The translations under genes were made by a program, and so were the position numbers. From Sphingomonadales bacterium (lineage in GTDB: Bacteria > Pseudomonadota > Alphaproteobacteria > Sphingomonadales > Sphingomonadaceae), in the NCBI GenBank assembly GCA_017309275.1, contig JAFKLT010000034.1, positions 47,891 through 111,890 of the forward strand: 64,000 nucleotides of DNA, read 5' to 3'. Shown here in pieces: positions 1 through 24,269 of this stretch (within the stretch, counting starts at the first letter, position 1; each line of letters begins with the position of its first letter). The notes under the pieces were generated by a model. It was not told the DNA's origin and made no database searches. It saw only the letters and a program-made list of their open reading frames with translations.

Positions 1-1715
1 ACCGGATCTTCGAAGGGGGCCACAGTCCCATTGAGGTTTCCGGAACGGAAGCTGCCGCGCTGGCTGAAATACACCATGTGGCTGGGATCGATCTGGTACT
101 GTAGGCTGGCAGTCCAGGCAGGTGCCGACAGCTTCTTGCGCTGCGTTGCGGCGGGAGAGTCGGGATCGACGCCGAATACATTCCCAGGCGCCTGCGTGAT
201 GCCGACATTCACCCATGTGTAGCGGCCACCCAGAATCGCCGTGAGCTGATCGGTGACCTTATAGCTAATTTGCGCAAACACCGCCTTGGACGATTCCCGG
301 TTGCGATAGGCGTAGGAAATATCAGCTATCCCGCCGGGAACGACATCGGCGCCGATGTTGATCGGAATGATTTCATAACGCCGCTGGCGCGAAAAGAACA
401 CACCTGCGGTGTAGTCCAGCCGGTCGTCTAGCGCCGACCCCTGCACTTGAAGTTCGTTGGTGAAGATATTCGACCGGAAGGTTTGGCCGCCGGGAACGCC
501 GGTGGCATTGATGCCGTTTAGCTTGAAGAGCCAGAGGCTACCGAACGGTCCACCACCAAGGTTGCCCGAGGTTACGGAATTGCCCTTCATATAGGAGAAG
601 ATGTTCTTGATCGTCATCGTGTCGGTGACATCAAGCTCGGTCGTATTGGAGACGAAGAAATTCTCCGCGCTGTGCGGCAAATCGTACTGGAGGAAAGTCT
701 TGTACGGATTATCGTGCGAGAATTTGGTGAAGCCTTCGACTGCGCCAGGGAAAAAGCCCGGGCCCGCCGGCCCATCGTTGGCCCCATATATCGCGGCGAG
801 GGTTGAATCCCACAATACTCCGGTTGTATTGAAGAACTTGTTCGTGCCATCGCTGTTGAACTGGGTCGACGGATCGCCCGGCGTGGTCGGCACGCTGTTA
901 TAGTTGATGATATTACCGGCGCCTTCGGTCCCCTTAACGCGGTCATATTGGACGACTGTCGAGTTTCTGATCGTATCGGTCGGGGTGAGCAAGATTGTCG
1001 CGCGGCCCGAGCGGCTGTTCTTGTCGCCCAGCGTGTTGCCGGTGTTCACGTTGGTCATATAACCGTCGCCGCGGGTGATATCGCCCGCAAGGCGAATGGC
1101 GAGCTTGCCAGGGATCAGCGGCAGGTCGATCGCGGCTTGCATCTGGCCATAGTCGCGCGAAGCGCCGCGCAGAATGACAAATCCGGAAAATTCGTCGCCA
1201 GGCATTGGCGTTGAATAGAGAACTGCACCGCCCGTCGCATTGCGCCCGAACAGCGTTCCTTGGGGGCCTTTGAGGACCTGGATCGAACCGAGGTCGAAAA
1301 ACGCGGTCGCGGTATTGCCGGGATTGTAGGGCGCCTCGTTGAGGTAGGTCAGAACGGCAGGGCTGGTGCCCGAAAAGGGATCGAGCGACTGCCCGCGCAT
1401 GCTGAAGCTGAGCTGATTGGAGTTCTGGCCATTTTTTACTTGCAGGCCGGGCACGAGCGTGCCGATGTCTTGTTCGCTGGTGATCGCGCGGTCCTGAATC
1501 GTCTCGGCACCGAAGGCTACGACCGACACAGGCACTTTCGACAAGCTTTCTTCTCTGCGCTGCGCGGTGACGATGATTTCATTGGGGGCTGGGGCTTCGG
1601 CTTCAGTGGTCGTATCCGCTTCCTGCGCGAACGCAGCCGCCGGAAACGCAAAAGCTGCGGCCAAAATGGTGCCGCCGAGCAGGATATGGCTCGACCGATA
1701 TTTTGCTTTCGACAT
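1..1715 (-). CDS. TonB-dependent outer-membrane receptor, partial (C-terminus beyond window)
   Basis: The frame is open for 571 codons from an ATG at 1715 to the window edge, so the C-terminal part of the barrel is missing. The start has a GGGAGAGAG ribosome site. Residues 1-30 form a signal peptide ending AFA-QE. They are followed by a TonB-box-like EIIVTAQRREE and a plug domain (VPVSVVAFGAETI, then QVLKGPQGTLFGRNATGGAV, typical of sphingomonad receptors). Alternating aromatic beta-strand sequence follows. The protein should import a substrate across the outer membrane using TonB energy. It sits 20 bp downstream of the SnoaL-like gene and is probably cotranscribed with it, which ties it to the P450 island. 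The substrate cannot be read from the sequence; a terpenoid is inferred from the neighbours. Confidence 0.93.
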   Translation of the reverse strand, partial: MSKAKYRSSHILLGGTILAAAFAFPAAAFAQEADTTTEAEAPAPNEIIVTAQRREESLSKVPVSVVAFGAETIQDRAITSEQDIGTLVPGLQVKNGQNSNQLSFSMRGQSLDPFSGTSPAVLTYLNEAPYNPGNTATAFFDLGSIQVLKGPQGTLFGRNATGGAVLYSTPMPGDEFSGFVILRGASRDYGQMQAAIDLPLIPGKLAIRLAGDITRGDGYMTNVNTGNTLGDKNSRSGRATILLTPTDTIRNSTVVQYDRVKGTEGAGNIINYNSVPTTPGDPSTQFNSDGTNKFFNTTGVLWDSTLAAIYGANDGPAGPGFFPGAVEGFTKFSHDNPYKTFLQYDLPHSAENFFVSNTTELDVTDTMTIKNIFSYMKGNSVTSGNLGGGPFGSLWLFKLNGINATGVPGGQTFRSNIFTNELQVQGSALDDRLDYTAGVFFSRQRRYEIIPINIGADVVPGGIADISYAYRNRESSKAVFAQISYKVTDQLTAILGGRYTWVNVGITQAPGNVFGVDPDSPAATQRKKLSAPAWTASLQYQIDPSHMVYFSQRGSFRSGNLNGTVAPFEDP

Positions 1716-1735
1716 GTCTCTCTCCCTCATGATTA

Positions 1736-2299
1736 TCATTTTTTGGCGGAAGCTGCTCCCGCCGTTATCGTGTCCAAAGTCTCTCGCTTAGTGTCTTGCC
1801 GCGGGAAATCGCTTGCCTGCGGTGCGGCGCCCGGCCAGCGGATATTGAGCGGGCTCGAGAGCGATGTGCTGACGTCCGACCAGGGGCCGACATGGATCGC
1901 ACGCATCTCGCGGCGGGCGATCCGCCACTGCCCGTCTTCGCGGCGATATCGGTCGAGATAGCGGACGGCAGCGAAATAGGTCGCCTCGCCAATCCCTAGT
2001 TCAAGATGCGCCGCAACGGTTCCCGAGGCCGCGTCGGGGCCGTCGAAGCTCAGCTGCACATAATTGGGGGTGTGGACGGTCTGACCCATCCCAGACCGTG
2101 CCATTTTCAGAAATTCGGTGATCGCCGCGCGGCCCGCACTGTCGGGAAAGCCAGATGCTGCGAAGGTCGCGTCGATGGTGAAACAAAGTCCCAGCTGCGC
2201 ATAATCATCGTCGTCGGTGGCCTGAAAATAGGTCGCAACGAGATCGTGCAGTTCTGCACGATCCTCCAGCTTGCGCACTCGGTCTTCCAAAGTTGCCAC
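1736..2299 (-). CDS. SnoaL-like/NTF2-fold protein
   Basis: This 187-residue protein opens with ATLEDRVRKLEDRAELHDLVATYF, the usual beginning of SnoaL_4-type proteins (a cone-shaped alpha+beta barrel). Family members act as hydroxylase small subunits, isomerases or dehydratases, and the chemistry here is unknown. I chose the GTG at 2299 because AGGA lies 8 nt upstream and the protein then starts at the conserved ATLEDR. An ATG 12 codons further up would place the coding start next to the operator palindrome. It is the first gene of a two-gene unit with the TonB receptor and is divergent from the CMD-family gene. Its terminal 30 residues are polar and probably disordered. Confidence 0.85.
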   Translation of the reverse strand: MATLEDRVRKLEDRAELHDLVATYFQATDDDDYAQLGLCFTIDATFAASGFPDSAGRAAITEFLKMARSGMGQTVHTPNYVQLSFDGPDAASGTVAAHLELGIGEATYFAAVRYLDRYRREDGQWRIARREMRAIHVGPWSDVSTSLSSPLNIRWPGAAPQASDFPRQDTKRETLDTITAGAASAKK

Positions 2300-2339
2300 T
2301 GATTTTTTCCTATCCCAGACCGCCCGTGTAAACACATGT

Positions 2340-2365
2340 GTTGACTAGTCAACGCTAAAGTTGAC
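2340..2365. promoter_or_regulatory. Operator with three half-sites, GTTGAC-TA-GTCAAC-N6-GTTGAC
   Basis: The stretch contains a perfect 14-bp palindrome (2340-2353) overlapping a perfect inverted repeat AGTCAAC-N6-GTTGACT (2347-2366). It lies between the divergent SnoaL-like and CMD-family genes. The last half-site overlaps a plausible -35 (TTGACT) for the CMD-family gene. An adjacent palindrome AACACATGTGTT occupies 2331-2342. The same arm-N6-arm design recurs at 7823-7842 and 7881-7898. Confidence 0.7.
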
Positions 2366-2394
2366 TGAGAGCGAAAATCGGTTAAACCAGATCC

Positions 2395-3054
2395 ATGGAA
2401 ATGCTGTTTCTGCCCCACCTGCGCGATTCAACGCTGAAGGCGCTCGATGGCGTTGCGGAAGGAAGTCCCCTGGCGCCGCTGCCGCGGGCGCTGATTCAAC
2501 TCGGACTCGCGGCCTCGGTGACGTCGCTTGATCGCGGCGCATTGTCCGTCGCCGTTGCGGCCGCCTATGATCGCGGCGCGACGCCGACGCAGGTGCAAGA
2601 AGTGATTGCCCTCGTCTCCGGGCTCGGGGTGCATTCGCTGATGATCAGCGCGGTTATCGTGCTCGAAGAGGCGCAGCGGCGCGGTCTTGTGCCCGCCGAC
2701 AACATGCTCGATACCCAGCGTCAGGCGTTATGGGATGCGCGGGTTGGCGACGACCCATTCTGGGCCGATTTCGAGCGCGAGATGCCAGGCTTTTTGAAAG
2801 CGCTGCTCGTGCTGTCGCCCGACAGCTTCACTGGCTTCTTCGACTATTGCGCGATCCCCTGGAAATCGGGCACCGTGCCCGCGCGCGTCAAGGAACTGAT
2901 CGCAATGGCGAGCGACGCGACCCCCGCGCACCGCTTCGGTCCGGGCTTCCGCGTCCATTTGGGCAACGCGCTCAAATTGGGATGCGGCCGTACCGAAATT
3001 CTCGAGGCATTAGGTCTGGCGGCCGCGGCCCCTACGCATCGCGGGACGCCCTGA
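2395..3054 (+). CDS. Carboxymuconolactone decarboxylase/AhpD-family protein
   Basis: The 219-residue protein looks like a duplicated CMD-type alpha-helical fold. The first half has AAYDRGATPTQVQEVIALV and the second has VKELIAMASDATPAHRFGPGF followed by LGCGRTEILEALGLAA. The second repeat lacks the AhpD-type CxxC pair, so a peroxidase role is doubtful. A decarboxylase, lactonase-like or purely structural role remains possible. No strong ribosome site precedes the ATG. It is transcribed away from the SnoaL-like gene under the shared operator and ends 3 bp from the converging P450 gene. Confidence 0.82.
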   Translation: MEMLFLPHLRDSTLKALDGVAEGSPLAPLPRALIQLGLAASVTSLDRGALSVAVAAAYDRGATPTQVQEVIALVSGLGVHSLMISAVIVLEEAQRRGLVPADNMLDTQRQALWDARVGDDPFWADFEREMPGFLKALLVLSPDSFTGFFDYCAIPWKSGTVPARVKELIAMASDATPAHRFGPGFRVHLGNALKLGCGRTEILEALGLAAAAPTHRGTP

Positions 3055-3057
3055 ACT

Positions 3058-4335
3058 TCAGGCCACGTCCCACACGAACGGCACATCCTCGACCGCCGCG
3101 ATGATACCCGACCGATAGATCGGATTCGCGCCTTCGGCCAAACGGAAGGTGGGAATACGCTTTAACCATTCCTGCAACGTCACCGTCGCCTCCATGCGGG
3201 CGAGATGCATCCCGACGCAGCGGTGCGGGCCGCCGCCAAAAGTAGTGTGCTTAGGCCCCTTGCGGTCCCATTGGACGTCCATCGGGCAGGCGTTTTCGTT
3301 GGCATCGAGCCCGTGCAGCACGGTCGGCAGCAAGATCATGTCGCCATGCTTGAGCTCGACCCCATGGAAGACCTGATCCTTGGCGACCATGCGCGCTTCG
3401 GACACGACGGCGAAACGTCGGAACAACTCTTCGACGCCGCGCAGCAGTTTCAGGTCGTTGCCCTGCAGTTCGGCGACCTTGTCCGGATTGCGCGCCAGGT
3501 AGATCATCATGAAGCTGAGGAAATTGACGACGGTATCGAGCCCGCCCAGCAACAGCAGCGAGATCATCCCGACCGCCTTGTCGTGAGGCAAGGGCTCGCC
3601 GTTGATCGTTCCGTTCACGACGGTCGTTATCAGATCGGTGTCGGTGCCGCCGCGCCGCGCATTGATGATCGGTTCGACATATTCGAAAAAGCCGGTGTTG
3701 GCGGCATCGAGGCACGCCGCCATCTCCTCCGGCGTGTCGCCGGTCGGGCGAGTCATGCCGACAGCAAAATGCTCGAGCTTGGGCGCATCTTCCATCGGAA
3801 GGCCGGCCATTGCCATGAACACTTTGACCGGAAATATCTTGGCGTAATCTGTCGAAAAATCGCAATGACCACGCGGTGCGATTTCATCGATCAGGTCGCT
3901 CGCGGTTTGCCGCACTTGATCCTCCACCTCGCGGATGCGAGCGAGATTTAGCCCGGTATCGAGAAGTTTGCGGTACGGTGTATGTTCCGGCGGATCCATC
4001 CGGGTCGGCACCATCAGATACTTCTCGCCCGCTTCCTTGGGGAGGAAGATGACCTCGCTCGAGAACCGCGAGGGGTCCTCATAGATTTCACGGACCATAG
4101 GCCCGTCCATCGCGATCCAGTGGCCGCCGGTCAGCGGAGTCCACACGAGCTTGGGCATGTTCTGGGCATGAAGCCCGACCCAAGCTTCGTGATAGCCTGC
4201 CTCGATGCCGTCGAGCGCGTACATGTCGATATCGCGGACCAGGTTGTCCGGCACATGGACGGGCTTAACGACGCGCGAGCGATTGTCGGCGGCTGGCGCC
4301 GGGGATTGGGTGTCGATGGACGTTGCCTTGTTCAT
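3058..4335 (-). CDS. Cytochrome P450, CYP101 (P450cam)-like
   Basis: A complete 425-residue soluble class I P450. The haem loop FGGGPHRC ends at the ligand Cys373, the ExxR of helix K is E303-R306, and the I-helix reads [13 protein letters not shown] (260-272) with the acid/alcohol pair D267-T268. The text around the I-helix, the C-terminus and the B' region matches P450cam as I remember it. In that alignment F97, Y106 and T111 fall on P450cam F87, Y96 and T101, the camphor-contact residues. V247 is replaced by Leu and D297 by Glu. It is the last gene of the LLM-LLM-ADH-P450 operon. Its electrons should come from the reductase and ferredoxin at 11639-13207. Family certain; substrate (camphor-like ketone) inferred. 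Confidence 0.95.
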
Positions 4336-4359
4336 GGAAGAGCCTCTTTCGGTTCGATG

Positions 4360-5445
4360 TCAGCTATGTTCGGGATCGATAACCGCCTTGATGACGTTGC
4401 CTGCGGCGGTCGCTGCGAGCGCCGCGCTCGCACCCGCCACGCCGAAGCGATGCGTGACCAGCGCGGCCAGCGGCACACGGTCTTGGCACCGGACTGCAAG
4501 TTGCAGCGCGTCATGGTAGTTTTTCGGCTTGGGGAAGCTGGCGCCCGCGACGGTCAGATTCTTGGTCGTCAGGTCGCGCGGGCTGATCGGCTGGGTGCCG
4601 ATCGCGCCCCACAAGCCCAAGATGATATAGCGGCCATGGTTTCCGGTGAGATCGACGCCTTCGGGGAAGGCCGACAGGACGCCTGCCGCCTCGACCACCA
4701 CATCGGGACCATTCGCGCCGCAAAGATCATAGATTTGGCGCCTTCGCTCATCAGCACTATCCTCGAGCGACACGGTCGCTGTCGCGCCAAGTGATTTCGC
4801 AACGTCGAGCCGGTTGGCATGGACATCGACCGCGATCACTTCGCGCGCGCCCATCAGCGACGCGACGAGGACCGCGGCTAGGCCGACCGGCCCTGCGCCT
4901 TGCACGACCACACTCTGGCCGATGCGTACCGGGCCGCAGCGATCAAAGCCGCGCAGCACCGTCGGCAGTGCGCAACCCAAGGCGATCACGGCATCGACAT
5001 CGGCATGGTCAGGGACGCGGAAGAAGGCGAGGCCATTGGGTAGCCAGGCAAAGTCGGCATAGCTGCCCCAGTTTGGCTTCTCCGCATGTTCGAAAAATTG
5101 GGAATTCTCGCATGGCGTTTCCTCGAGTACGGTGCAGCTGTGGCAGCGATGGCAGAGCGCGATCGGCGCCCAGTAAACCAGATCGCCGGGCTTCACCGGC
5201 ACGCCTGCGTAGTCGGTCGTCACCCCTTCGCCGAGTTTCTCGACTCGGCCGACGCCTTCATGGCCGAGGATGATAGGGAAGGGCATGATCCCGGCGCCGC
5301 CATCCGCGATATGAACATCGCTGCCGCAAACGCCGCCGACGACGATCCGCACCAGCGCACCGCCGGGTTCGGGATCGACGATCGGCACATCCCAGGTCTC
5401 AATTCGGTTGGGCTCGACGAGTACGCATGCTTTGCCGGTGGCCAT
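4360..5445 (-). CDS. Zinc-dependent alcohol dehydrogenase (hydroxycamphor-dehydrogenase-like)
   Basis: A 361-residue medium-chain dehydrogenase. Catalytic zinc ligands are C40 (GGVCGSD) and H62-E63 (LGHEG). A four-cysteine structural zinc site is formed by C98, C101, C104 and C112. The Rossmann motif GAGPVGL follows. It should oxidise a secondary alcohol to a ketone with NAD(P). It lies 24 bp upstream of the P450 gene, so it probably oxidises the alcohol the P450 makes, as 5-exo-hydroxycamphor dehydrogenase does in Pseudomonas. The start has AAGGAAA 8 nt upstream. Confidence 0.92.
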   Translation of the reverse strand: MATGKACVLVEPNRIETWDVPIVDPEPGGALVRIVVGGVCGSDVHIADGGAGIMPFPIILGHEGVGRVEKLGEGVTTDYAGVPVKPGDLVYWAPIALCHRCHSCTVLEETPCENSQFFEHAEKPNWGSYADFAWLPNGLAFFRVPDHADVDAVIALGCALPTVLRGFDRCGPVRIGQSVVVQGAGPVGLAAVLVASLMGAREVIAVDVHANRLDVAKSLGATATVSLEDSADERRRQIYDLCGANGPDVVVEAAGVLSAFPEGVDLTGNHGRYIILGLWGAIGTQPISPRDLTTKNLTVAGASFPKPKNYHDALQLAVRCQDRVPLAALVTHRFGVAGASAALAATAAGNVIKAVIDPEHS

Positions 5446-5505
5446 ATGCTGTTTCCTTCCCGCGGTTCGGTCTTGCGCCGGATCTCGCTGATATTGATCA
5501 TCGCC

Positions 5506-6606
5506 CTAATTGGGCATTTTGACTTTCGGACAGACCTCGGTCGCCAGTCGGCGCAGCGATTCTTCCCAGGGTTTCGGGTCGTCGAGGCTGTCATGCTGGT
5601 TGGCGACAATCTGGCCCCAGCCGCCGCAGGCGTCGGCCAGTCTCTCCAGCTTCTCGATTACCGTTTCAGGCGACCCGCACAGAATGACATGATTGATCAG
5701 GAAGTCATCGTCGATGTCGGCGGGCGAAATGTCCTGGCCGCTGTCGGCGATGATGCCGTCGAAGAGGCCGAATTTGACGTAAATTTCTTTCAGATATTCA
5801 TGCCAGGTTCGCATCATCCCGGTCTTGAGCACCATCCGTTTGGCCTCAGCGTCGGTGTCGGCGATGAAAACGTCGCGGCAGACGCGATAGCGGCTGCGGT
5901 CGGCGGTGCGGCGTTTGGAAGCCATCGCCGTTTCCCACGTGTCCCAATGCGCCTTCATCTGCGGTGTACCGCCAAAAAAGGAAATCGGGCTGTAATCGCG
6001 CTCGCCCGCAAACTTCATCGATGAGCTGTTCATTGACAGCCCGGTGACCGCGATCTCAAGCTTGTCGCGCCCGCCATAGGGACTGTTGTCGGCGATCAGC
6101 ACATTATATTCGGGCATCGTTTCCGAGCCTGGAAAGCCTGCCTGGAAATACTCACCCTTCTCGACGAAGGGTTTGCGCTCCCACACCCGCTCCATGAGAT
6201 GCAACGCCTCAAGCTGGCGCGGCGGCAGGCTCGAAATATTCTCATAGCCATGGAGGATGGCGTCGGTGTGATGTCCGCCGGGCGCAACACCGAGGAAATA
6301 GCGCCCTTCCATTACCTGGCTGAGCCAGCCGATGCGGATCGCGAGCGTCGCCGGGTCGTGGTAGGGCAGCAAATGCGCCATGGGAGCAAAGCGGATATTT
6401 TTGGTCGTCTGCGCGCAGGCGGCAATGATCGCCTCGGGCATCGGGATATTTTCCCAGCCCAGCGTATAATGTTCGCCGATCATATAATCGGTGTAGCCCG
6501 CCTCGTCGGCGATCCGCGCGATGTCGAGCGCCCAGTCGAACACTTGCCGCGGGGTGCGGTTCGGCGGATTATAGGGGGTCATAAAGATCCCGCACTGCAT
6601 CGGCAT
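5506..6606 (-). CDS. LLM-class flavin monooxygenase, diketocamphane-monooxygenase-like (type II Baeyer-Villiger)
   Basis: A 366-residue bacterial-luciferase-fold enzyme. Conserved stretches include IGEHYTLGWENIP, NIRFAPMAHLLPYHDP, GRYFLGVAPGGHHTDAILHG, FQAGFPGSETMPEY and NSSSMKFAGERDYSPISFFGG. From memory these follow 2,5-diketocamphane monooxygenase closely. Such enzymes use FMNH2 supplied by a separate flavin reductase to turn a cyclic ketone into a lactone. No flavin reductase gene is seen here. I chose the ATG at 6606, with GGGAG about 8 nt upstream; a TTG five codons earlier would lie inside that ribosome site. Function: oxidation of the ketone made by the P450 and dehydrogenase. Confidence 0.9.
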   Translation of the reverse strand: MPMQCGIFMTPYNPPNRTPRQVFDWALDIARIADEAGYTDYMIGEHYTLGWENIPMPEAIIAACAQTTKNIRFAPMAHLLPYHDPATLAIRIGWLSQVMEGRYFLGVAPGGHHTDAILHGYENISSLPPRQLEALHLMERVWERKPFVEKGEYFQAGFPGSETMPEYNVLIADNSPYGGRDKLEIAVTGLSMNSSSMKFAGERDYSPISFFGGTPQMKAHWDTWETAMASKRRTADRSRYRVCRDVFIADTDAEAKRMVLKTGMMRTWHEYLKEIYVKFGLFDGIIADSGQDISPADIDDDFLINHVILCGSPETVIEKLERLADACGGWGQIVANQHDSLDDPKPWEESLRRLATEVCPKVKMPN

Positions 6607-6642
6607 TGACGTCTCTCCCAATCTTGTTCTTATGGCATCGGC

Positions 6643-7797
6643 TTAGACATAGGTTCCGTCGGCCGCCTTCGTCGAAAAGCGCGGTGCGACCTTTGCGATG
6701 AATTCTTCGAGCTCGGCGTGGTTTTCGTCAGGCTCGAGATGGCCCTGCCCGAACATCAGGAACAGTTCGTCAAAGCCTAGCTTGTCATGCGCCTTGCCGA
6801 TCTGGTCGGCGATCTCGTCGGCCGAGCCGATCAGGACATTGGGCGGGCGCTGGCCGAGCGGAATGAACCATTCGTCCCAGAACCACATATGCTCTTCCAT
6901 CAGCTTCTTGGCGCGTTCTTTATCGCTGGTGAGCATCAAGAAGCCGCCCCACGCCGAAGCATCGGTGCTGGTGACTTCCCGACCGTGCTTGGCGGCATGG
7001 CCGATGTAGCGTTGGTTGAGCGAGTCGCAGAAATCGAGATTGTCCGAGAGGACAATCAGCTTGCCGCCTTCCTCCGCCCAGAAATCGATCGTGCGTCCCG
7101 ACGCGGCAAAGCCGCCATAGATCGGCGGATGCGGATCTTGGTAACAGCGCGGCGCGATGCCAATCTGGCGGACGATACCGTCGGCATCCTGGCCTTTGCC
7201 ATATTTGGCATAAGCGGGGTGTCCGCCGGATCCGCCCTCGGGCGGGAACTGCCAATTATCGCCCTTGTGGTCGAATACGTCGTTGGTCCACGCCTTCTTG
7301 ATGACGCGCACGCCTTCCTCGAACAACGATCGGTTTCGGGCGTCCTGCTGGTCGCGCGCCTTCACATTGTCGGGCGTCGTCGCGCCGACGCCTTCCTTAA
7401 TGCCATAGGCGTCGACCCAGCGCGCATGATAGCCGCGGGTGAAACCGCAAAACAGCCGACCCTGCAGCATATGGTCGAGAGTTGCGATTTCCTCGGCAAC
7501 CCGCACCGGATTGTGGGTGGTCATGGTATAACCCATGATCCCCGCTTTCATCCGCTTGCTGTGCTGTCCGACGAACAGGCTGAACATGCCGGGGTGGTTA
7601 TTTACCTCGAAACCCTCGATCTGGAGATGATGTTCAGGCTGGCAGTAGCCATAGAACCCGAGTTCGTCGGCATGCTGCACATATCCGCGCACTTCTTCGA
7701 GAAAGCGCTGGTACAGTTCGGGGCGCTGGCCGGCCATTCCCTGTTCGATCTCGTGGCGCCGCCCGACGACCCCGGTCTGCATCAAATGGAATTTCAT
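6643..7797 (-). CDS. LLM-class flavin-dependent oxidoreductase
   Basis: A 384-residue luciferase-like monooxygenase, first gene of the four-gene minus-strand operon. Motifs include GFYGYCQPEHHLQIEGFEVNN near the N-terminus, TLDHMLQGRLFCGFTRGYHARWVDAYG, and a C-terminal VLIGSADEIADQIGK typical of the family. It differs clearly from the neighbouring diketocamphane-type enzyme, so the operon probably carries two separate flavin monooxygenation steps. The start at 7797 has GAGGAG a few bases upstream. The promoter region holds the palindrome at 7823-7842, only 26 bp from the start. Substrate unknown. Confidence 0.9.
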   Translation of the reverse strand: MKFHLMQTGVVGRRHEIEQGMAGQRPELYQRFLEEVRGYVQHADELGFYGYCQPEHHLQIEGFEVNNHPGMFSLFVGQHSKRMKAGIMGYTMTTHNPVRVAEEIATLDHMLQGRLFCGFTRGYHARWVDAYGIKEGVGATTPDNVKARDQQDARNRSLFEEGVRVIKKAWTNDVFDHKGDNWQFPPEGGSGGHPAYAKYGKGQDADGIVRQIGIAPRCYQDPHPPIYGGFAASGRTIDFWAEEGGKLIVLSDNLDFCDSLNQRYIGHAAKHGREVTSTDASAWGGFLMLTSDKERAKKLMEEHMWFWDEWFIPLGQRPPNVLIGSADEIADQIGKAHDKLGFDELFLMFGQGHLEPDENHAELEEFIAKVAPRFSTKAADGTYV

Positions 7798-7822
7798 AGC
7801 CCGCTCCTCACCCGATAGTTTT

Positions 7823-7842
7823 TATCAACACTCGCGTTGATA
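7823..7842. promoter_or_regulatory. Operator TATCAAC-N6-GTTGATA
   Basis: A perfect 7-6-7 inverted repeat between the divergent LLM operon and acyl-CoA ligase gene. The central bases ACTCGC share the NNTNGC pattern with the other copies when those are read in the same orientation. It sits where a repressor would block the LLM-operon promoter. Confidence 0.65.
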
Positions 7843-7880
7843 GGAAGGATGTGGGGCTTCTGTCAATGGGCAATCGGACA

Positions 7881-7898
7881 GTCAACAATAGCGTTGAC
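7881..7898. promoter_or_regulatory. Operator GTCAAC-N6-GTTGAC
   Basis: A second inverted repeat in the same divergent region, 75 bp before the acyl-CoA ligase start. The right arm with the next base (TTGACA) is also a consensus -35 hexamer, so binding could occlude RNA polymerase. Centre AATAGC. Confidence 0.65.
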
Positions 7899-7955
7899 AG
7901 ATTGCTTGCGACTACGCATGGATGGCGACGCGCACAAATAGATGCGGGAGAGGAT

Positions 7956-9587
7956 ATGAGTTTCGACAGTTGGTCAGCCACGGCGACGCTTGGCGACCTG
8001 CTGGTGCAAAGCGCCAGCCGGTTTCCGGAGCGCAAGGCTATTGTGTTCCCCGAGAGCGCCATCACTTATGCTGCGCTGCTGGACGGGGCAGTGGCGGTCG
8101 CTCGCGGTATTGTCGGCTTGGGGATTGCGCCGCGGTCGAACATCGGCTTGCTCGCCAATAACGGTCACGAACTCGTCACCGGGTTATTCGGGGCATGGCT
8201 TGCCAATTGCGTGGCAGTCCCGCTCAACGCGCGGCACAAGGAGCATGAGCTCGGCTACATCATCAACAACGCACAAATCACATTATTGCTAACGGCGGCC
8301 AGCGACACCAGTCACGTTGATTTTCGCGACAGCATCGCGAGTGCGCTACCCTCGCTGGCGGGCGCAGCCGCGGGCATTCTCGCGCTACGCGAGGCACCGA
8401 TGCTCCGTCATATCGTTCTTCTTTCGGGTGACGCCCCGGCAGCTTTTACCGATGCCGCAGTCTTTGCCGCAGCCGGGAGCACGGTGGAGGCAGGCGAAGT
8501 CGATCACCGGCGTCGCTGCACGCGCCTGCGCGACGTCGCGACGATCATTTACACGTCGGGCACGACCGCCAACCCCAAAGGATGCATGCTGACGCATGAG
8601 GCAATGTCGCGCGGTCCCGTCGAGCGCGCTGACAAGCGCTTCCGCTCGGGGGACTGCGACGTCACCTGGGGCGGAGGGCCGCTGTTTCATATCGGCTCGC
8701 TCGCTCCCTTTATAGGCTCGATCGGCGCATCGGGCACCTATCTGACCGACACCTTCTTCAACCCGGCCCGCGCCGTCGCATTGATGAAACGCGAAGGGGT
8801 CACCGCGATGTGGCCCTGGTTTCCGGCGATCCTCCAGCCTCTGCTCGACGAGCCCGACTTTCTCGCTGCGGCAGAAAAGGTGCGGTCGATGCTGCTGATC
8901 GGACCCGAAGCACTCGTCGACCGGGTCCAGAAATTGATTCCCAGGGCCGAGATCATGCAAGCCTGCGGCATGACCGAGACTTCGGGCATCTTTGCACTCA
9001 GCGATCCGGACGAAACGGCCGAACAACGTGCAACCAGTAATGGTAAGGCGGTCCCGGGCATCGAGCTGCGCATCGTGAATGACGATGGCGCGGACGTTCC
9101 GCCGGGTGCGGTCGGCGAAATCTTGGTCCGCGGCTATTGCGTGATGGAGGGCTATTATCGCGATCCGGTCAAAAGTGCCGAAGCACTCGATGCCGACGGC
9201 TGGCTCCATACCGGCGACCTCTACACCCGTAGCGCCGACGGCCGCCTGATCTTCAATGGCCGCGCGAAGGATATGCTCAAGGTCGGCGGCGAGAATGTTG
9301 CCGCGATCGAGGTGGAGGCCTATCTTTGCAGCCATCCCGCGGTGCGAATTGCCGAAGTTGTTGGTCGGCCCGATCCCCGACTTGACGAAGTTCCTGTCGC
9401 CTTCGTTGAACTGATGCCCGGCATTGAGGCGAGCGCCGACGATCTGATCGCGCACTGCAAGGGACGGATCGCGGGCTATAAGGTGCCGCGCGCGGTACAT
9501 TTCATCAAGGCCGAGGACTGGCCAATGTCAGCGACCAAGGTCAACAAGCGGGAATTGCGTGCCTGGCTCGCCAAGCTCGAGCCATGA
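7956..9587 (+). CDS. AMP-forming acyl-CoA ligase
   Basis: A 543-residue ANL-superfamily enzyme. The nucleotide-binding loop is TIIYTSGTTANPKGCML, the A5-like motif is MQACGMTETSG, and the hinge and lysine region is GRAKDMLKVGGENVAAIEVE. It activates a carboxylic acid as its AMP ester and then as a CoA thioester. The start at ATG 7956 is supported by GGGAGAGG immediately upstream. An in-frame GTG at 7851 would place the operator inside the coding region and is unlikely. In this setting it may activate the ring-opened acid after the Baeyer-Villiger step, the place held in camphor degradation by the oxo-trimethylcyclopentenylacetyl-CoA ligase. It ends 2 bp from the converging TetR gene. Confidence 0.92.
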   Translation: MSFDSWSATATLGDLLVQSASRFPERKAIVFPESAITYAALLDGAVAVARGIVGLGIAPRSNIGLLANNGHELVTGLFGAWLANCVAVPLNARHKEHELGYIINNAQITLLLTAASDTSHVDFRDSIASALPSLAGAAAGILALREAPMLRHIVLLSGDAPAAFTDAAVFAAAGSTVEAGEVDHRRRCTRLRDVATIIYTSGTTANPKGCMLTHEAMSRGPVERADKRFRSGDCDVTWGGGPLFHIGSLAPFIGSIGASGTYLTDTFFNPARAVALMKREGVTAMWPWFPAILQPLLDEPDFLAAAEKVRSMLLIGPEALVDRVQKLIPRAEIMQACGMTETSGIFALSDPDETAEQRATSNGKAVPGIELRIVNDDGADVPPGAVGEILVRGYCVMEGYYRDPVKSAEALDADGWLHTGDLYTRSADGRLIFNGRAKDMLKVGGENVAAIEVEAYLCSHPAVRIAEVVGRPDPRLDEVPVAFVELMPGIEASADDLIAHCKGRIAGYKVPRAVHFIKAEDWPMSATKVNKRELRAWLAKLEP

Positions 9588-9589
9588 GA

Positions 9590-10246
9590 TCAGTCCTTGC
9601 GGCGTGCCATTCCGTCGAAAAAGATATCGCTGAACCCTTCGGACACTTCGCGCGCGGGATGCGCGCCGCCCGGCTGGTACCAGCGGTGCGTCCAGTTGAG
9701 CATGCCGAATACCGCATTGGCTGCGACGGACACCGGAATGTCGGAGCGCATCTCGCCGCGCTCGATGAGTTCGGAAATGAGGCTCATCACGATCCGTTCG
9801 AACTTTCGCGTCTGGCTGACGATCTGCTGCGCCCAAGTGCTCTTTTCGCCGGCGATGCGGTTCATTTCTTCCTGGATGTAGACATACATATGCGGATAAT
9901 GCTGGTCGTAGGCGCTCATCAGCTGATTGATGACGCCGCGCAGTCTCTGGGCAGGCGAGAGGTCGGAATCGTTGGCAATCCGCTCGCACTCGTTGATATT
10001 TTCATCGACCCCAACGCGCAGGCACTCGCGGAACAATTCTTCCTTGCTGCCGAAGTAATAATAGACCGTCGCACGATCCAACCCGGCCTTGTGGCCGATC
10101 TCGGCGAGCGTCGTTGCGCGGAAGCCGTTGTTTTTAAACTGGCGTCCGGCGATCTCGACCAGCTCGGCACGCTTGGCGAGATAATCGCTGCTGCCGTCTT
10201 CAAGAGCCGATTTGCGGCGACGGGAAATGTTGCTCGATTGCGCCAT
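9590..10246 (-). CDS. TetR-family transcriptional regulator
   Basis: A 218-residue protein. The N-terminal helix-turn-helix reads TTLAEIGHKAGLDRATVYYYFGSKEELF, the TetR signature, after a basic extension of about 35 residues. The C-terminal ligand-binding half is divergent, as usual. The ATG at 10246 is preferred; an upstream TTG adds seven residues. It is divergent from the SDR gene. It is the only regulator inside the P450 island, so it is the best candidate for the protein that binds the GTCAAC-N6-GTTGAC sites, although no such site lies in its own promoter. CamR of the Pseudomonas camphor operon is also a TetR protein. Confidence 0.93.
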   Translation of the reverse strand: MAQSSNISRRRKSALEDGSSDYLAKRAELVEIAGRQFKNNGFRATTLAEIGHKAGLDRATVYYYFGSKEELFRECLRVGVDENINECERIANDSDLSPAQRLRGVINQLMSAYDQHYPHMYVYIQEEMNRIAGEKSTWAQQIVSQTRKFERIVMSLISELIERGEMRSDIPVSVAANAVFGMLNWTHRWYQPGGAHPAREVSEGFSDIFFDGMARRKD

Positions 10247-10316
10247 GGCCGTCTGCCTACCCCCCAACCCGCCGCAATTCCAGACATATTCCTACCGGCA
10301 GATCAGGAGAGAAAAA

Positions 10317-11063
10317 ATGGGTCAGCTCGATGGAAAAATAGCCATCGTCACCGGAGCATCACGCGGTATGGGTGCGTCGCACGCGCGGCGGTTCGTGGCG
10401 GAAGGGGCGCAAGTGCTCCTCACCGATTTGCGTGCCGACGTGGGTGATGCATTGGCGTCCGAGCTGGGAAGCCGGGCCGCCTTTGCCGAGCATGATGTCA
10501 CAAATGCAGCCGACTGGCAGCGCATCGTCGCGATCACGGAAGACAAGTTTGGACCGGTGACCGTATTGGTCAACAACGCTGGCATATTGGGACCGATGGC
10601 CAAGACTGCCGAGGTGACAGAAGCCGATTATATGCATGTCTGTGCCGTCAATCAGCACAGCATCTACCTCGGCATGCATGCGGTGATCCCGTCGATGCTC
10701 AAAGCCGGGCAGGGCTCGATCGTCAACATCTCTTCGATCGCAGGACTGGTCGCCAACTACGGGTTTCCGAGCCTTGCCTATGTTGCCAGCAAATTCGCAG
10801 TGCGCGGTATGACCAAGGCGGCGGCGGTCGAATATGGTCCCGACAATATCCGCGCGAACTCGGTCCATCCCGGCTTTATCATGACCCCGATGATGGTCGA
10901 GGCGACCAACGAGGAGGGCGGCGACGCCCTCGCGCAGATCCCGCTCCGCCGCATCGCTGAGCCCGAGGAGGTGTCCAACCTGGTCCTCTTCCTAGCCTCG
11001 GACCAATCTTCTTACATTACCGGGGCCGAGCATGTGATCGACGCGGGGATGACGGCGCAGTGA
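10317..11063 (+). CDS. Short-chain dehydrogenase/reductase
   Basis: A classical SDR of 248 residues: cofactor loop TGASRGMG, NNAG motif, catalytic Ser in NISSIAG, YxxxK as YVASK, and an SDR C-terminal block ending DAGMTAQ. It oxidises or reduces an alcohol/ketone with NAD(P)(H). The ATG at 10317 has AGGAGAG 6 nt upstream. It is divergent from the TetR gene and may act on an intermediate of the island. Substrate unknown. Confidence 0.92.
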   Translation: MGQLDGKIAIVTGASRGMGASHARRFVAEGAQVLLTDLRADVGDALASELGSRAAFAEHDVTNAADWQRIVAITEDKFGPVTVLVNNAGILGPMAKTAEVTEADYMHVCAVNQHSIYLGMHAVIPSMLKAGQGSIVNISSIAGLVANYGFPSLAYVASKFAVRGMTKAAAVEYGPDNIRANSVHPGFIMTPMMVEATNEEGGDALAQIPLRRIAEPEEVSNLVLFLASDQSSYITGAEHVIDAGMTAQ

Positions 11064-11072
11064 TGCTTTTAA

Positions 11073-11090
11073 GACCAACGCTAGAGAAAC
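11073..11090. promoter_or_regulatory. Possible degenerate copy of the GTCAAC-N6-GTTGAC operator
   Basis: The left half (ACCAACGCTAGA) resembles GTCAACGCTAAA of the 2348-2365 site, but the right half has lost the GTTGAC arm. It lies in the gap between the SDR and VOC genes. This is weak evidence and is listed only because the position would bring the ferredoxin genes under the same control. Confidence 0.25.
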
Positions 11091-11141
11091 AAGTTGCCCG
11101 CAATCACCGTGCGAGGTTCACTTTTTTGAGAGAGAAATGCT

Positions 11142-11558
11142 GTGGTGGCACCCTTTAAGCTAATCGGATTGGACCATGTCGTTCTGCGCGTGTCCGATTT
11201 GAACGCTGTCAAAGCTTTTTATCAGAGCGTCCTAGGGTGCGCCTTGGAGCGTGAAGAGCCTGATATCGGATTATATCAACTGCGCGCAGGTCGCTCTTTG
11301 ATCGATCTGGTCACTGTAGCTGGAAAGCTCGGCGCAGCAGGCGGCGGGCCTCCTGCATCAGATGGCCGGAACATGGACCATCTTGCCATTGCCATCGATC
11401 CTTTTGACGAGGACGCGATTCGTTCGCATTTGGCGGAATTTGCCATTGCCGTTGATGAAGCCGGGGCACGCTATGGCGCGGAAGGTGAAGGGCCTTCGAT
11501 TTATATTCGCGATCCAGAAGGTAACCGCGTCGAGCTGAAAGGACCGCCGACACGGTAG
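11142..11558 (+). CDS. VOC-family (glyoxalase/extradiol-fold) metalloprotein
   Basis: A 138-residue single VOC unit with the metal triad H12 (GLDHVVLRV), H80 (NMDHLAI) and E131 ([10 protein letters not shown]). VOC proteins act as lyases, epimerases, isomerases or dioxygenases, and this one cannot be assigned. The start is GTG-GTG at 11142/11145 with only a weak purine-rich site upstream. Its base use is less GC-rich than the SDR before it and the reductase after it, which suggests the island was assembled from several sources. Confidence 0.85.
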
Positions 11559-11638
11559 TTCAAGCGTCATCGGTGTCAGACCTGCAACTGGGCGGCGAAA
11601 TGCCGTTGGAGACAGGTGCGCCAGCAGGAAACAAAATA

Positions 11639-12877
11639 ATGCATTTCGACGTGGTGATTGTGGGAGCCGGACACGGCGGCGCGCAGGTGGCGATCATGCT
11701 GCGCACCCAGAAATTCACCGGCAGCATCGCGATCATCGGTGACGAGCCTGAGCTTCCCTATGAGCGCCCGCCGCTGTCGAAGGAATATTTCGCGGGCGAG
11801 AAAGAATTCGAACGCATCCAGCTGCGCCCCGCCAAATATTGGGACGAACGCGAGGTGACCATGCTGCTTGGCACGCGCGTCGTGTCGGTCGATCCTGTGG
11901 GCCACAGCGTCACGACCAATGGCGGCGAGATGATCGGTTATGGCAAGCTCGTCTGGGCCACCGGCGGCTCGCCACGGATGCTGCCGATCCCCGGCGGCGA
12001 CCTCCCGGGTGTGCAGGGGGTGCGCACGCGCGCCGATGCCGATGCGATGAAGGCGGCGTCGGAGACGGCCAATCAGATCGTCGTCATCGGCGGCGGCTAC
12101 ATCGGACTCGAAGCGGCAGCAGTGCTGCGCAAGGCGGGCAAGAAGGTTGTGCTGCTCGAAGCGCTCGACCGGGTGCTGGCGCGCGTCGCGGGGACCGAGC
12201 TGTCGCGCTTCTACGAACGCGAGCACCGCGAGCATGGCGTTGACCTGCGGCTGGGCGTTGCGGTCGAAGCGATCGAGGGCGAGGGGCACGTCACCGGGGT
12301 GCGCCTCGCCGACGGCGAAGTCATTGCCGCCGATCTTGTCATCGTCGGCATCGGCATCGTCCCCGCAGTCGAGCCGTTGATCGCGGCGGGGGCCGAGGGT
12401 GGCAATGGCGTGCTCGTCGACCGCCTCTGCAAGACCAGCCTGCCCGACATCTATGCAATTGGCGACTGCGCCGCGCATGAGAATGACTATGCCGAAGGCG
12501 TGGTCATCCGGCTGGAATCAGTCCAGAACGCCAATGATCAGGCGAATGTCGTCGCCAAGGGCATCGTCGGCGACGAAGCGCCCTATCATGCCATCCCCTG
12601 GTTCTGGTCGAACCAATATGACCTCAAGCTCCAGACCGCGGGGCTATCGACCGGGCACGACCGCGCCGTCATGCGCGGCGACCCCGCGACGCGCAGCTTT
12701 TCGGTGGTCTATCTGAAGGCGGACAAGGTGATCGCGATCGACTGTGTCAACGCGACCAAGGATTATGTGCAGGGTCGGATGATCGTCACCGCCGGACTGG
12801 CCGCGACCGCCGAGCAACTTGCCGACACCGAAACCCCGCTGAAGGCGCTGCTTTCACTAAACTCAAATTCAACTTGA
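11639..12877 (+). CDS. Ferredoxin reductase, putidaredoxin-reductase-like
   Basis: A 412-residue FAD/NAD(P)H reductase. The FAD loop is [13 protein letters not shown] near the N-terminus, [12 protein letters not shown] is characteristic of the group, the NAD loop is [13 protein letters not shown], and the second FAD contact is [10 protein letters not shown]. The C-terminal [15 protein letters not shown] is typical of putidaredoxin/rhodocoxin reductases. It should pass electrons from NADH to the ferredoxin 12 bp downstream and then to the P450. The ATG at 11639 has AGGA upstream; an in-frame GTG at 11573 is less likely because it adds an unusual leader. Confidence 0.93.
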
Positions 12878-12889
12878 TGGAGCAATTAT

Positions 12890-13207
12890 ATGCCAAGCCT
12901 GACAATTGTTGATCGGAAAGGGACGGCGCATCCGCTCAAAGCGGACGCAGGCCTCAATCTGATGGAGATAATCCGCGAACACGGATTCGACGAGTTGCTC
13001 GCGCTATGTGGCGGATGTTGTTCATGTGCGACCTGCCACGTCCATGTAGCTCAGGGATTTCTGGGCAAGATCCCAACCATGTGTGAGGATGAAAACGATC
13101 TACTAAACAGTTCGTCTGATCGCAACGAGACGTCACGACTTGCTTGTCAGATTCCCTTTAGTGATCACCTCGACGGAATTAGCGTGACCATCGCGCGCGA
13201 TGATTAG
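12890..13207 (+). CDS. 2Fe-2S ferredoxin, putidaredoxin/adrenodoxin type
   Basis: A 105-residue ferredoxin with cluster ligands C40, C46, C49 and C86 in the C-x5-C-x2-C...C spacing of putidaredoxin. Three extra cysteines (C43, C44, C65) are present; two of them sit inside the cluster loop, which is unusual. It shuttles electrons from the adjacent reductase to the P450 at 3058-4335 and completes a class I P450 chain, although it lies about 9 kb from the P450 gene. Its codon use is less GC-biased than that of the reductase. Confidence 0.93.
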   Translation: MPSLTIVDRKGTAHPLKADAGLNLMEIIREHGFDELLALCGGCCSCATCHVHVAQGFLGKIPTMCEDENDLLNSSSDRNETSRLACQIPFSDHLDGISVTIARDD

Positions 13208-13625
13208 CATCACTCGTGAGCCTGGACGCGGCGGGACGACACAGACCGCTTTTTGCATTTCATGCCCGAGAGCAGAACGGCTGCCATAGGGAAAGTTCGA
13301 TTGTGAATGCCCGGAGGTATAGCTGGTCAGGCATTCTAAGGATTATTAGCTCGGGTCATTCTCGCCCGATTTGGAACTCGAACCGCTACAGTGAATTTCC
13401 TCATGGGTCACCAACTGGGTCATATAAGAACCGAATCTAGATAACGAATTTTTATCAATTACTTAAATGAGGAGAGTGAGTCCTCTTCTGGCACCATTTC
13501 TTTCTCCCGCAAATATCCCGAAATTTCTGAAGAATTGCGGGAGATTTGCTGCCCGGCTTCCGGCGGCATGAATTGCGGTATCGGCAAACTTGCAATCGCC
13601 GCGCCGACGCTCGACATAGGGCGTC
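13208..13625 (+). other. Non-coding stretch with lower GC and two hairpins
   Basis: No convincing gene is present in these 418 bp. The sequence becomes clearly AT-richer around 13400-13475. Two hairpins can be drawn: GAGGA-N7-TCCTC (13469-13485) and a 10-bp perfect repeat TCTCCCGCAA/TTGCGGGAGA (13503-13512 with 13535-13544, 22-nt loop). The second could end transcription from the ferredoxin side or regulate selO. The stretch marks the border between the catabolic island and housekeeping genes. Confidence 0.5.
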
Positions 13626-15086: not shown

Positions 15087-15146
15087 TCGGTTGAGCCCTT
15101 CTGCCGCGCTTGCTAGGGACGGCGCCGTACCTCAAGGGATAAAGCG

Positions 15147-23178: not shown

Positions 23179-23468
23179 TGCGCCGGCTCGCGCTCCTGCT
23201 GCCGCTGATCCTGGCCGCCTGCGACAAGGACCCCAGCTTCGACGATCGCTATGACAAGGCGGCAAAGGAGATCGAGGCCCGCGCCAAGGCGATGGACGCC
23301 GACATCGGCGAGGCCGAGAAGGCGGCGGATGTTGCTGATGGCGCAAAGGCCGCCCCGTCCGCTCCGGGATCGAAGGTCGAGCCGGGCGGAAAAATTCCGC
23401 GCACCGATCCGGTCCCCTTGCCAGACGGCGCGAGGCCGTCTACGGGACCCTCGTCATCTGGGGAGTAG
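23178..23468 (+). CDS. Small predicted lipoprotein downstream of tamB
   Basis: A 96-residue protein. Residues 1-15 are a lipoprotein signal with lipobox LAAC and modified Cys15. The rest is charged and likely helical (KEIEARAKAMDADIGEAEKAAD), with a Pro-rich tail. The ATG overlaps the tamB stop by one base, giving a tamA-tamB-lipoprotein unit. No family is recognised. Its stop codon lies inside the conserved 5' loop of the riboswitch that follows, so translation termination and riboswitch folding share bases. Confidence 0.8.
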   Translation: MRRLALLLPLILAACDKDPSFDDRYDKAAKEIEARAKAMDADIGEAEKAADVADGAKAAPSAPGSKVEPGGKIPRTDPVPLPDGARPSTGPSSSGE

Positions 23469-23565
23469 CCAGCCGTCGTTCGCGACGGGCCGCCGCGTCA
23501 ACATACTTGGCTGAGAGGTCATGGTGCGGTGGAAGCGGGAATACCGCTTGGGCGAGACCAATGGC
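23455..23565 (+). ncRNA. yybP-ykoY (manganese) riboswitch aptamer
   Basis: The conserved elements of the yybP-ykoY class are present in order: GGGGAGTAG (23460-23468), a variable GC-rich stem, CGTCAACATACTTGGCTGAGAG (in two parts: CGTCAACATACTTGG and CTGAGAG, near 23496-23517) and the 3' CGAGACC near 23556. This class binds Mn2+ and controls Mn exporters. It sits directly before a GDT1/UPF0016 exporter gene, the expected target. I recognised it by eye; stem boundaries are approximate. Confidence 0.85.
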
Positions 23566-23581
23566 ATCGAACCTTCCGTCC

Positions 23582-23632: not shown

Positions 23633-23648
23633 TGGAGTACCAAATCCC

Positions 23649-24221: not shown

Positions 24222-24237
24222 CACGGCCTTGCGGATG

Positions 24238-24259: not shown

Positions 24260-24269
24260 TGACGCGCGC

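What the first reader, a model, noticed from the sequence alone, without database searches (positions are those of the whole stretch)
3058..13207. A camphor-pathway-like P450 island in a sphingomonad
P450cam-like P450, zinc alcohol dehydrogenase, diketocamphane-monooxygenase-like LLM enzyme, CoA ligase, putidaredoxin reductase/putidaredoxin pair and TetR regulator all occur within 10 kb, as in Pseudomonas camphor degradation, but rearranged (redox partners ~7 kb from the P450, ADH-P450 fused to two LLM genes). Extra SnoaL, CMD, VOC and SDR genes suggest a different or extended route.
Basis: partly seen in the sequence, partly recalled or inferred. Interest (0 to 1): 0.8.

Follow-up and report, generated by a model that had tools for sequence, protein, structure and literature searches.

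The report
Camphor-type catabolic island in a sphingomonad
This stretch of a sphingomonad genome, together with about 7 kb just left of the window, looks like a transferable gene set for eating camphor-like plant terpenes; it shares a regulatory DNA signature with relatives in other bacteria and seems to lack one enzyme of the textbook pathway.

Summary
The genes are real and form the right two thirds of a camphor-type catabolic island of about 20 kb. The P450 is a CYP101D enzyme (66% to CYP101D2) with the camphor-type B/C loop. The true diketocamphane monooxygenase ortholog (LLM3, 77% to P. putida 3,6-DKCMO) lies 5.7 kb left of the window, as do a flavin reductase and RibBA. The window's LLM1 is 45% to 3,6-DKCMO, the identity published for 2,5- versus 3,6-DKCMO. 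In N. aromaticivorans, CYP101D1 and CYP101D2 each sit in such an island with an OTEMO ortholog. A palindrome RTCAAC-N6-GTTGAY occurs exactly 3 times in the window, only at island promoters, and 84 times in 26 of 26 related loci, against 0 to 2 for other spacers. It also recurs in two Pseudomonas islands and before OTEMO genes of relatives. So the island is a coherent regulon tied to camphor chemistry. It departs from the textbook pathway: this genome shows no OTEMO ortholog (best 45%), and a conserved FMN enzyme of unknown role (LLM2) leads the operon. Substrate, and LLM2 as an OTEMO substitute, are inferred; no growth data were found.

The parts
1..1715 (-). TonB-dependent receptor, N-terminal part (its 3' part lies left of the window)
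   Evidence: Pfam Plug and beta-barrel; TBDR match of 30% or more in 20 of 26 island loci
1736..2335 (-). SnoaL_4-like protein
   Evidence: Pfam PF13577; 12 of 26 loci
2348..2365 (.). Operator-like palindrome RTCAAC-N6-GTTGAY between SnoaL and CMD (a 1-mismatch copy at 2328-2345)
   Evidence: conserved between CMD and SnoaL in relatives
2395..3054 (+). CMD-domain protein (C-terminal CMD domain)
   Evidence: Pfam PF02627; 22 of 26 loci
3058..4335 (-). CYP101D-type cytochrome P450, predicted camphor 5-exo-hydroxylase
   Evidence: 66.3% to 3nv5 (CYP101D2, label recalled), 61.3% to CYP101D1; camphor-type loop residues F/Y/M/T
4360..5445 (-). Zinc alcohol dehydrogenase, predicted hydroxycamphor dehydrogenase (CamD role)
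   Evidence: Pfam; beside the P450 or LLM1 in many loci; 23 of 26 loci
5506..6621 (-). LLM1, DKCMO-family FMN monooxygenase, predicted 2,5-DKCMO-type ketolactonase (start probably 6606)
   Evidence: 45% to 3,6-DKCMO 4uwm; H46 and E52 kept, H10 and S44 changed
6643..7797 (-). LLM2, conserved luciferase-like FMN monooxygenase of unknown role
   Evidence: 23 of 26 loci; 72-91% in the 16 relatives aligned, 72-75% in two Pseudomonas
7824..7841 (.). Operator-like palindrome, LLM2/CoA-ligase divergent promoter
   Evidence: conserved
7881..7898 (.). Second operator-like palindrome of the same promoter
7851..9587 (+). Acyl-CoA ligase, predicted to activate the ring-opened keto acid (palindrome at 7881 suggests the true start is later, near 7956)
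   Evidence: Pfam AMP-binding; 21 of 26 loci; directly after OTEMO in four relatives
9590..10267 (-). TetR regulator, best candidate to bind the palindrome
   Evidence: Pfam TetR_N and TetR_C_24; 21 of 26 loci; best match only 23% in the seven stretches without the palindrome
10317..11063 (+). SDR, possibly a borneol-type alcohol dehydrogenase
   Evidence: best PDB matches Rv2002 and 3alpha,20beta-HSD; at least 60% identical in 10 of 26 loci
11142..11558 (+). VOC/glyoxalase-family protein
   Evidence: Pfam
11573..12877 (+). NADH-ferredoxin reductase (CamA role)
   Evidence: Pfam Pyr_redox_2 and Reductase_C; NCBIfam HcaD/AndAa relatives
12890..13207 (+). 2Fe-2S ferredoxin (CamB role)
   Evidence: best PDB match 3lxf 117 bits, putidaredoxin 64 bits

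Best explanation
The window holds most of a horizontally acquired catabolic island for camphor or a close bicyclic terpenoid ketone. Proposed route: reductase and ferredoxin drive the CYP101D P450, which hydroxylates camphor at C5; the zinc ADH makes diketocamphane; LLM3 (left of the window) and LLM1, fed with FMNH2 by the island's flavin reductase, insert oxygen to give a lactone that opens to a cyclopentenone acid; the CoA ligase activates it; LLM2 or an unidentified enzyme does the second ring opening; hydratases and beta-oxidation finish. A TetR repressor acting on RTCAAC-N6-GTTGAY controls the genes, and RibBA raises flavin supply. Shown by sequence: gene identities, the 77% DKCMO ortholog, loop residues, the shared palindrome, OTEMO orthologs beside it in relatives, no OTEMO ortholog found here. 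Inferred: substrate, every reaction, TetR-operator binding, LLM2's role.
For: P450 nearest to the camphor hydroxylases CYP101D2 and D1, whose published substrate is camphor (PMC8197338 passages, PMC9655578 section 2). B/C loop: Tyr96 kept in 24 of 24 P450s aligned. LLM3 77.5% to P. putida 3,6-DKCMO. N. aromaticivorans (genome G304, genes 100% identical to both CYP101D1 and 3nv5) has each P450 in such an island with an OTEMO ortholog; the ES2-1 ortholog scores 945 bits to OTEMO against 444 for the next enzyme. Palindrome: 84 sites in 26 of 26 loci, other spacers 0-2, first of 1024 half-sites; it directly precedes OTEMO in four fetched stretches and in the N. aromaticivorans CYP101D2 island, and CYP101D5 in S. 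echinoides. Flavin reductase next to RibBA in the own island. Related islands in two genomes taken to be Pseudomonas.
Against: No growth, induction or enzyme data. CYP101D5, in the same kind of island and also preceded by the palindrome, is reported to hydroxylate ionones and flavonoids rather than camphor although it keeps the tyrosine (PMC9655578). No OTEMO ortholog found in this genome (best 45%, no palindrome in the 11 kb around it). A sphingomonad LLM acts on progesterone (PMC12239570). TetR as the binder is not clean: in 8 of the 33 stretches with sites no TetR ortholog lies in the stretch, though for three of these it was found elsewhere in the genome.
Confidence: 0.72

Rival explanations
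1. The island degrades a different bulky cyclic ketone or terpenoid (ionone, damascone, cineole, fenchone) with the same chemistry: hydroxylation, ketone formation, FMN Baeyer-Villiger cleavage and CoA activation.
For: CYP101D5 lies in the S. echinoides island and is reported to take ionones, not camphor. A DKCMO homolog (44% to 3,6-DKCMO) sits in a flavodoxin/P450 cluster of Rhodococcus that resembles a cineole cluster (recalled). Many LLM1 loci lack LLM3 within the fetched stretch (18 of 26), and 15 of 26 genomes lack an OTEMO ortholog of 70% or more.
Against: The F/W-Y-M-T loop residues of CYP101D1 and D2 are kept in the window P450 and in 21 of the 23 other P450s aligned; L028 and L058 each differ at one position. 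A 77% 3,6-DKCMO ortholog. OTEMO orthologs carry the same palindrome in relatives.
Confidence: 0.2
2. It is a steroid side-chain cluster, with the LLMs acting on progesterone-like ketones.
For: An LLM and a type I BVMO convert progesterone to testosterone acetate in Caenibius tardaugens (PMC12239570, abstract and passages); the SDR's best PDB matches include 3alpha,20beta-HSD; one relative locus is titled Chol11.
Against: The described pdc cluster is BVMO, two regulators (TetR, LuxR) and LLM; no CYP101D P450, ADH or ferredoxin is named in it in the passages seen. CYP101D5 did not take steroids (PMC9655578). P450 and LLM3 are nearest to camphor enzymes. The progesterone LLM was not compared by sequence here.
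Confidence: 0.05
3. LLM1 and LLM2 form one LuxAB-like heterodimer rather than two separate enzymes.
For: They are neighbours wherever both occur in the 26 loci and share one promoter.
Against: A Pseudomonas island has LLM2 (72%) with an 80% DKCMO and no LLM1 in the 60 kb fetched; three LLM1 loci lack LLM2; the ketolactonase is called homodimeric in print (PMC6352141 passage).
Confidence: 0.07

Closest known systems
[quoted passage not shown]
   Same: CYP101 P450 with ferredoxin and reductase, ADH, DKCMO-family monooxygenases, acyl-CoA activation, TetR-type regulators, mobile setting
   Different: No OTEMO (camG) ortholog found in this genome; redox genes transcribed apart from the P450; RibBA, flavin reductase, two hydratases, CMD and SnoaL proteins included; a palindrome unlike the CamR operator (no match in the window within 3 mismatches); AMP-forming ligase of unknown relation to camF1/F2
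CYP101D1 and CYP101D2 islands of Novosphingobium aromaticivorans
   Same: Same P450, ADH, LLM3 (D1 island) or LLM1 and LLM2 (D2 island), ligase, RibBA, flavin reductase, TonB receptor
   Different: There the two types are separate and each has an OTEMO ortholog; here LLM3, LLM1 and LLM2 are in one island and no OTEMO ortholog was found
Orf23 luciferase-like monooxygenase of the CAM plasmid
   Same: An LLM numbered next to camE25-2 (orf22), involvement called unrecognised (PMC6352141 passage), as LLM2 sits next to LLM1
pdc progesterone cluster of Caenibius tardaugens
   Same: LLM doing a Baeyer-Villiger step in a sphingomonad
   Different: Paired with a type I BVMO; no P450/ADH/ferredoxin set named in the passages seen

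Membership tests
CAM camphor pathway | CYP101 P450 of camphor-hydroxylase type | tested here: met
   66% to 3nv5 (CYP101D2, label recalled); loop residues kept
CAM camphor pathway | NADH-ferredoxin reductase and 2Fe-2S ferredoxin | tested here: met
CAM camphor pathway | Hydroxycamphor dehydrogenase (CamD) | tested here: inconclusive
   Zn-ADH beside the P450; CamD sequence not available
CAM camphor pathway | 3,6-DKCMO (CamE36) | tested here: met
   LLM3, 77.5% to 4uwm, left of the window
CAM camphor pathway | 2,5-DKCMO (CamE25) | tested here: inconclusive
   LLM1 45% to 3,6-DKCMO, as published for CamE25; active-site pattern fits; CamE25 sequence not available
CAM camphor pathway | OTEMO (CamG) | tested here: not met
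   best match in own genome 45%, no palindrome in the 11 kb around it
CAM camphor pathway | OTE-CoA synthetase (CamF1/F2) | tested here: inconclusive
   AMP-binding ligase, directly downstream of OTEMO in relatives L123, L125, L126, L129; CamF sequences not compared
CAM camphor pathway | CamR operator | tested here: not met
   0 matches in the window within 3 mismatches to the core of the operator given in PMC4592980
CAM camphor pathway | Growth on and induction by camphor | not testable with these tools
   bench only
Type II Baeyer-Villiger monooxygenase (DKCMO) family, LLM2 | Full-length sequence kinship to DKCMO | tested here: not met
   LLM2 21-26%, partial matches; superfamily member only
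Progesterone pdc cluster | LLM next to type I BVMO with TetR and LuxR regulators | tested here: not met
   no type I BVMO among the island genes annotated here; the BVMO-like genes of this genome lie on other contigs

The most novel reading that the evidence does not exclude
A second, all-FMN version of the camphor pathway exists: LLM2, under a conserved RTCAAC-N6-GTTGAY regulon spanning sphingomonads and Pseudomonas, performs the second ring opening (or an equivalent step) in place of the FAD enzyme OTEMO. LLM2 would then also be the unexplained orf23 of the classical CAM plasmid, and the regulon would couple catabolism to dedicated flavin supply (RibBA, flavin reductase, in some relatives riboflavin kinase and dodecin).
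Probability: 0.25. Interest if true: 0.75.

Novelty: new variant of a known kind. Interest (0 to 1): 0.6.

Why it matters
CYP101D1 and CYP101D2 have been structural models for years, but no title or abstract start listed by the ten literature searches made here describes their pathway setting (open-access library, capped lists). Here both fall into islands with DKCMO-family and OTEMO orthologs, which gives them a testable physiological role. The shared palindrome gives a regulon that can be searched in any genome, and LLM2 gives a candidate for the luciferase-like orf of the CAM plasmid whose role is called unrecognised (PMC6352141 passage).

Tried and rejected
LLM2 as a clean OTEMO substitute was tested by co-occurrence in the 26 LLM1 genomes: LLM2 only 14, both 9, OTEMO only 2, neither 1 (LLM2 judged within the fetched loci, OTEMO in whole genomes, two of its matches partial). 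This allows substitution but does not prove it; many genomes are MAGs. A first impression that OTEMO-less CYP101D1-type islands (L096, L098, L099) carry an LLM2 relative was dropped: the match is only about 50 bits. A first impression that this island has no flavin reductase was wrong: a recheck found one between the hydratase and RibBA.

The AlphaFold model of LLM2 was poor (mean pLDDT 55) and was not used. The C61 BVMO of this genome is not OTEMO-like (steroid monooxygenase 235 bits, OTEMO 219). A Pfam P450 search gave 13 matches in the genome, this P450 among the weaker ones. No tRNA was found in window 1-40000. CamE25 could not be obtained: 398 genomes of a genus taken to be Pseudomonas gave one CamE36-type, one LLM1-type and two 35% hits.

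The table of loop residues leaves out P450 matches shorter than 330 aligned residues or under 50% identity. P450cam residue numbers 101, 244-252, 295, 297, 395 and 396 are recalled; 87, 96 and 98 come from PMC9655578. That 3nv5 is CYP101D2 and 3lxf an N. aromaticivorans ferredoxin is recalled; and name them only as P450 and ferredoxin.
Full report
What is there. The window is C31:47891-111890 of a 5.1 Mb sphingomonad genome; the closest named locus (LLM2 99%, LLM1 98%, ADH 97%, P450 96%) is a Sphingopyxis MAG (L009). The order is SnoaL(-) CMD(+) P450(-) ADH(-) LLM1(-) LLM2(-) CoA ligase(+) TetR(-) SDR(+) VOC(+) reductase(+) ferredoxin(+). To the right, SelO and a UDP-glucose/GDP-mannose dehydrogenase-family gene follow at higher G+C (60.4% in window 1-13250, 64.7% in window 13600-64000).

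The island is bigger. Left of the window, C31 carries LLM3 (C31:41020-42144), a second TetR, SnoaL, RibBA (DHBP synthase plus GTP cyclohydrolase II), a flavin reductase (L048:15606-16103, PF01613), two enoyl-CoA hydratases, another SnoaL and the rest of the TonB receptor. Further left lies a MobA/MobL relaxase with a helicase domain. The island is accessory: LLM2 at 70% or more is in 7 of 298 genomes of the family, own included, and one relative lies on a Sphingobium xenophagum plasmid, pSH1.

P450. Best solved relatives are 3nv5 (recalled to be CYP101D2, 618 bits), CYP101D1 (581), CYP101D5 (537) and P450cam (416); identity is 66.3% to 3nv5 and 61.3% to CYP101D1. PMC9655578 (section 2 read) ties camphor binding to Trp89/Tyr98/Met100 in D1 and Phe87/Tyr96/Phe98 in P450cam. 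The window P450 has Phe, Tyr and Met there; of 24 island P450s aligned (own plus 23), Tyr is kept in 24, Met in 23 and Thr101 in 23.

Monooxygenases. LLM1 is 45% to 3,6-DKCMO, but LLM3, outside the window, is 77.5%. PMC4631483 (passages) gives 45% between 2,5- and 3,6-DKCMO, says only His46 and Glu52 of the cavity are shared, and that His10 and Ser44 are not conserved in 2,5-DKCMO. LLM1 keeps His46 and Glu52 and has Thr and Gly at 10 and 44 (alignment). LLM1 therefore fits the 2,5-type; the CamE25 sequence itself was not available. LLM2 is only 21-26% to the others, over partial alignments, but 72-91% to the 16 relatives aligned and 72-75% in two Pseudomonas.

The N. aromaticivorans anchor. 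One genome (G304) holds genes 100% identical to CYP101D1 and to 3nv5, so it is N. aromaticivorans by inference. CYP101D1 sits in island type A: ferredoxin, OTEMO ortholog, hydratase, SDR, ADH, P450, flavin reductase, ligase, RibBA, TetR2, LLM3, TonB receptor. CYP101D2 sits in type B: flavin reductase, two hydratases, CMD, LLM1, LLM2, ligase, TetR, RibBA, TonB receptor, ADH, ferredoxin, P450, OTEMO ortholog (74%). The type A OTEMO of strain ES2-1 scores 945 bits to OTEMO 3uov against 444 for phenylacetone monooxygenase. The window island is type B plus LLM3 with its TetR2. LLM3 orthologs (82-89%) are in 15 of 195 genomes of the genus searched.

A shared operator. RTCAAC-N6-GTTGAY occurs exactly 3 times in the 64 kb window, all at island promoters. 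With up to one mismatch there are 5 matches, one of them outside the island (52829), against 0.34 expected, none of 100 shuffles reaching 5. In the 26 loci L009-L034 there are 84 exact sites in 26 of 26; spacers of 0-5 and 7-15 give 0, 1 or 2; of all 1024 half-sites of this form it is first, the next giving 10 sites. The left part, L048, has none. Over 40 islands or island stretches examined, 33 have sites (114 in all; 0.14 expected by a first-order Markov estimate) and 7 have none, all of type A or A-like. Some of the 40 come from closely related genomes. Sites precede LLM2/ligase, CMD/SnoaL, DUF2889/TetR, LLM3, TonB receptor, riboflavin kinase (pSH1), CYP101D5 (L133) and OTEMO.

Of 15 OTEMO stretches fetched, 10 have an exact site: 4 directly before OTEMO (L121, L122, L127, L131), 4 between OTEMO and the ligase (L123, L125, L126, L129), one between OTEMO and an LLM1 relative (L128), one before LLM3 (L132); 5 have none (L118, L119, L120, L124, L130). 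The N. aromaticivorans type B OTEMO adds one more. The palindrome differs from the CamR operator printed in PMC4592980 (passages).

Who binds it. The TetR ortholog is absent (best 23%) in the 7 stretches without sites, and present in 25 of the 33 with sites. In the other 8 (L011, L016, L027, L031, L033, L091, L093 and one Pseudomonas) it is not in the stretch; for L011, L016 and L033 it was found elsewhere in the genome, next to the ligase. Binding is inference. PMC6027186 (passages) calls the individual roles of camS, camT, camU and camV uncharacterised.

What is missing. In the own genome the best match to the OTEMO ortholog is 45% (C47), with no palindrome in the 11 kb around it. Among the 26 LLM1 genomes, OTEMO at 70% or more is in 11, two of them partial, and LLM2 in 23 loci. 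S. echinoides, an isolate, has the full island with two CYP101D genes and no match at 1e-100. LLM2 is therefore a candidate for the second ring opening, or for another conserved step, since it is also kept in 9 genomes that have OTEMO. PMC6352141 (passages) mentions a luciferase-like orf23 on the CAM plasmid, whose camE25-2 is orf22, of unrecognised role; I predict it is LLM2.

Flavin supply. The own island has RibBA and a flavin reductase side by side. RibBA lies within 14 of 26 loci (13 if 200 aligned residues are asked) and a flavin reductase within 14 of 26. pSH1 adds dodecin and riboflavin kinase, the kinase with the palindrome before it. Two-component FMN enzymes need FMNH2, so a built-in flavin supply is plausible (inference).

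Against. CYP101D5 is reported to take ionones and flavonoids, not camphor (PMC9655578), yet sits in the S. echinoides island beside a camphor-type CYP101D; its identity with L058 rests on matching residue numbers Phe84, Ala88, Tyr93, Ala94 and on bit score. A progesterone-active LLM exists in a sphingomonad (PMC12239570, abstract and passages). That the two gammaproteobacterial islands are from Pseudomonas rests on RsmY matches in their genus. Ten literature searches listed no paper whose title or abstract start describes a sphingomonad camphor gene cluster, in an open-access library with capped lists.

Noticed in passing
L133 (S. echinoides) 11801-15253: Two adjacent CYP101D genes back to back, CYP101D5 and a camphor-type one, both in the island; CYP101D5 is preceded by the palindrome and looks like a duplicate with altered specificity.
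   Followed up: partly
L054 (Sphingobium xenophagum pSH1) 22591-26706: Dodecin, flavin reductase and riboflavin kinase sit in the island; the kinase has the palindrome upstream.
   Followed up: partly
L067 (Peribacillus plasmid) 9001-12690: A 40% LLM2 relative stands beside a lactonase-family gene, a RibB and a riboflavin kinase in a catabolic cluster, the same flavin-supply theme in a Gram-positive.
   Followed up: no
L056 (Rhodococcus pyridinivorans plasmid pA): P450, FAD reductase, flavodoxin and a 44% DKCMO homolog in one cluster, resembling a cineole pathway (recalled).
   Followed up: no
L096, L098, L099 (Novosphingobium genus): CYP101D1-type islands without an OTEMO ortholog carry a different LLM gene (about 50 bits to LLM2).
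   Followed up: partly
window 13626-15086 and L048 351-3185: A SelO gene begins right after the island and a MobA/MobL relaxase lies to its left, which may mark the right edge and the mobile source.
   Followed up: partly
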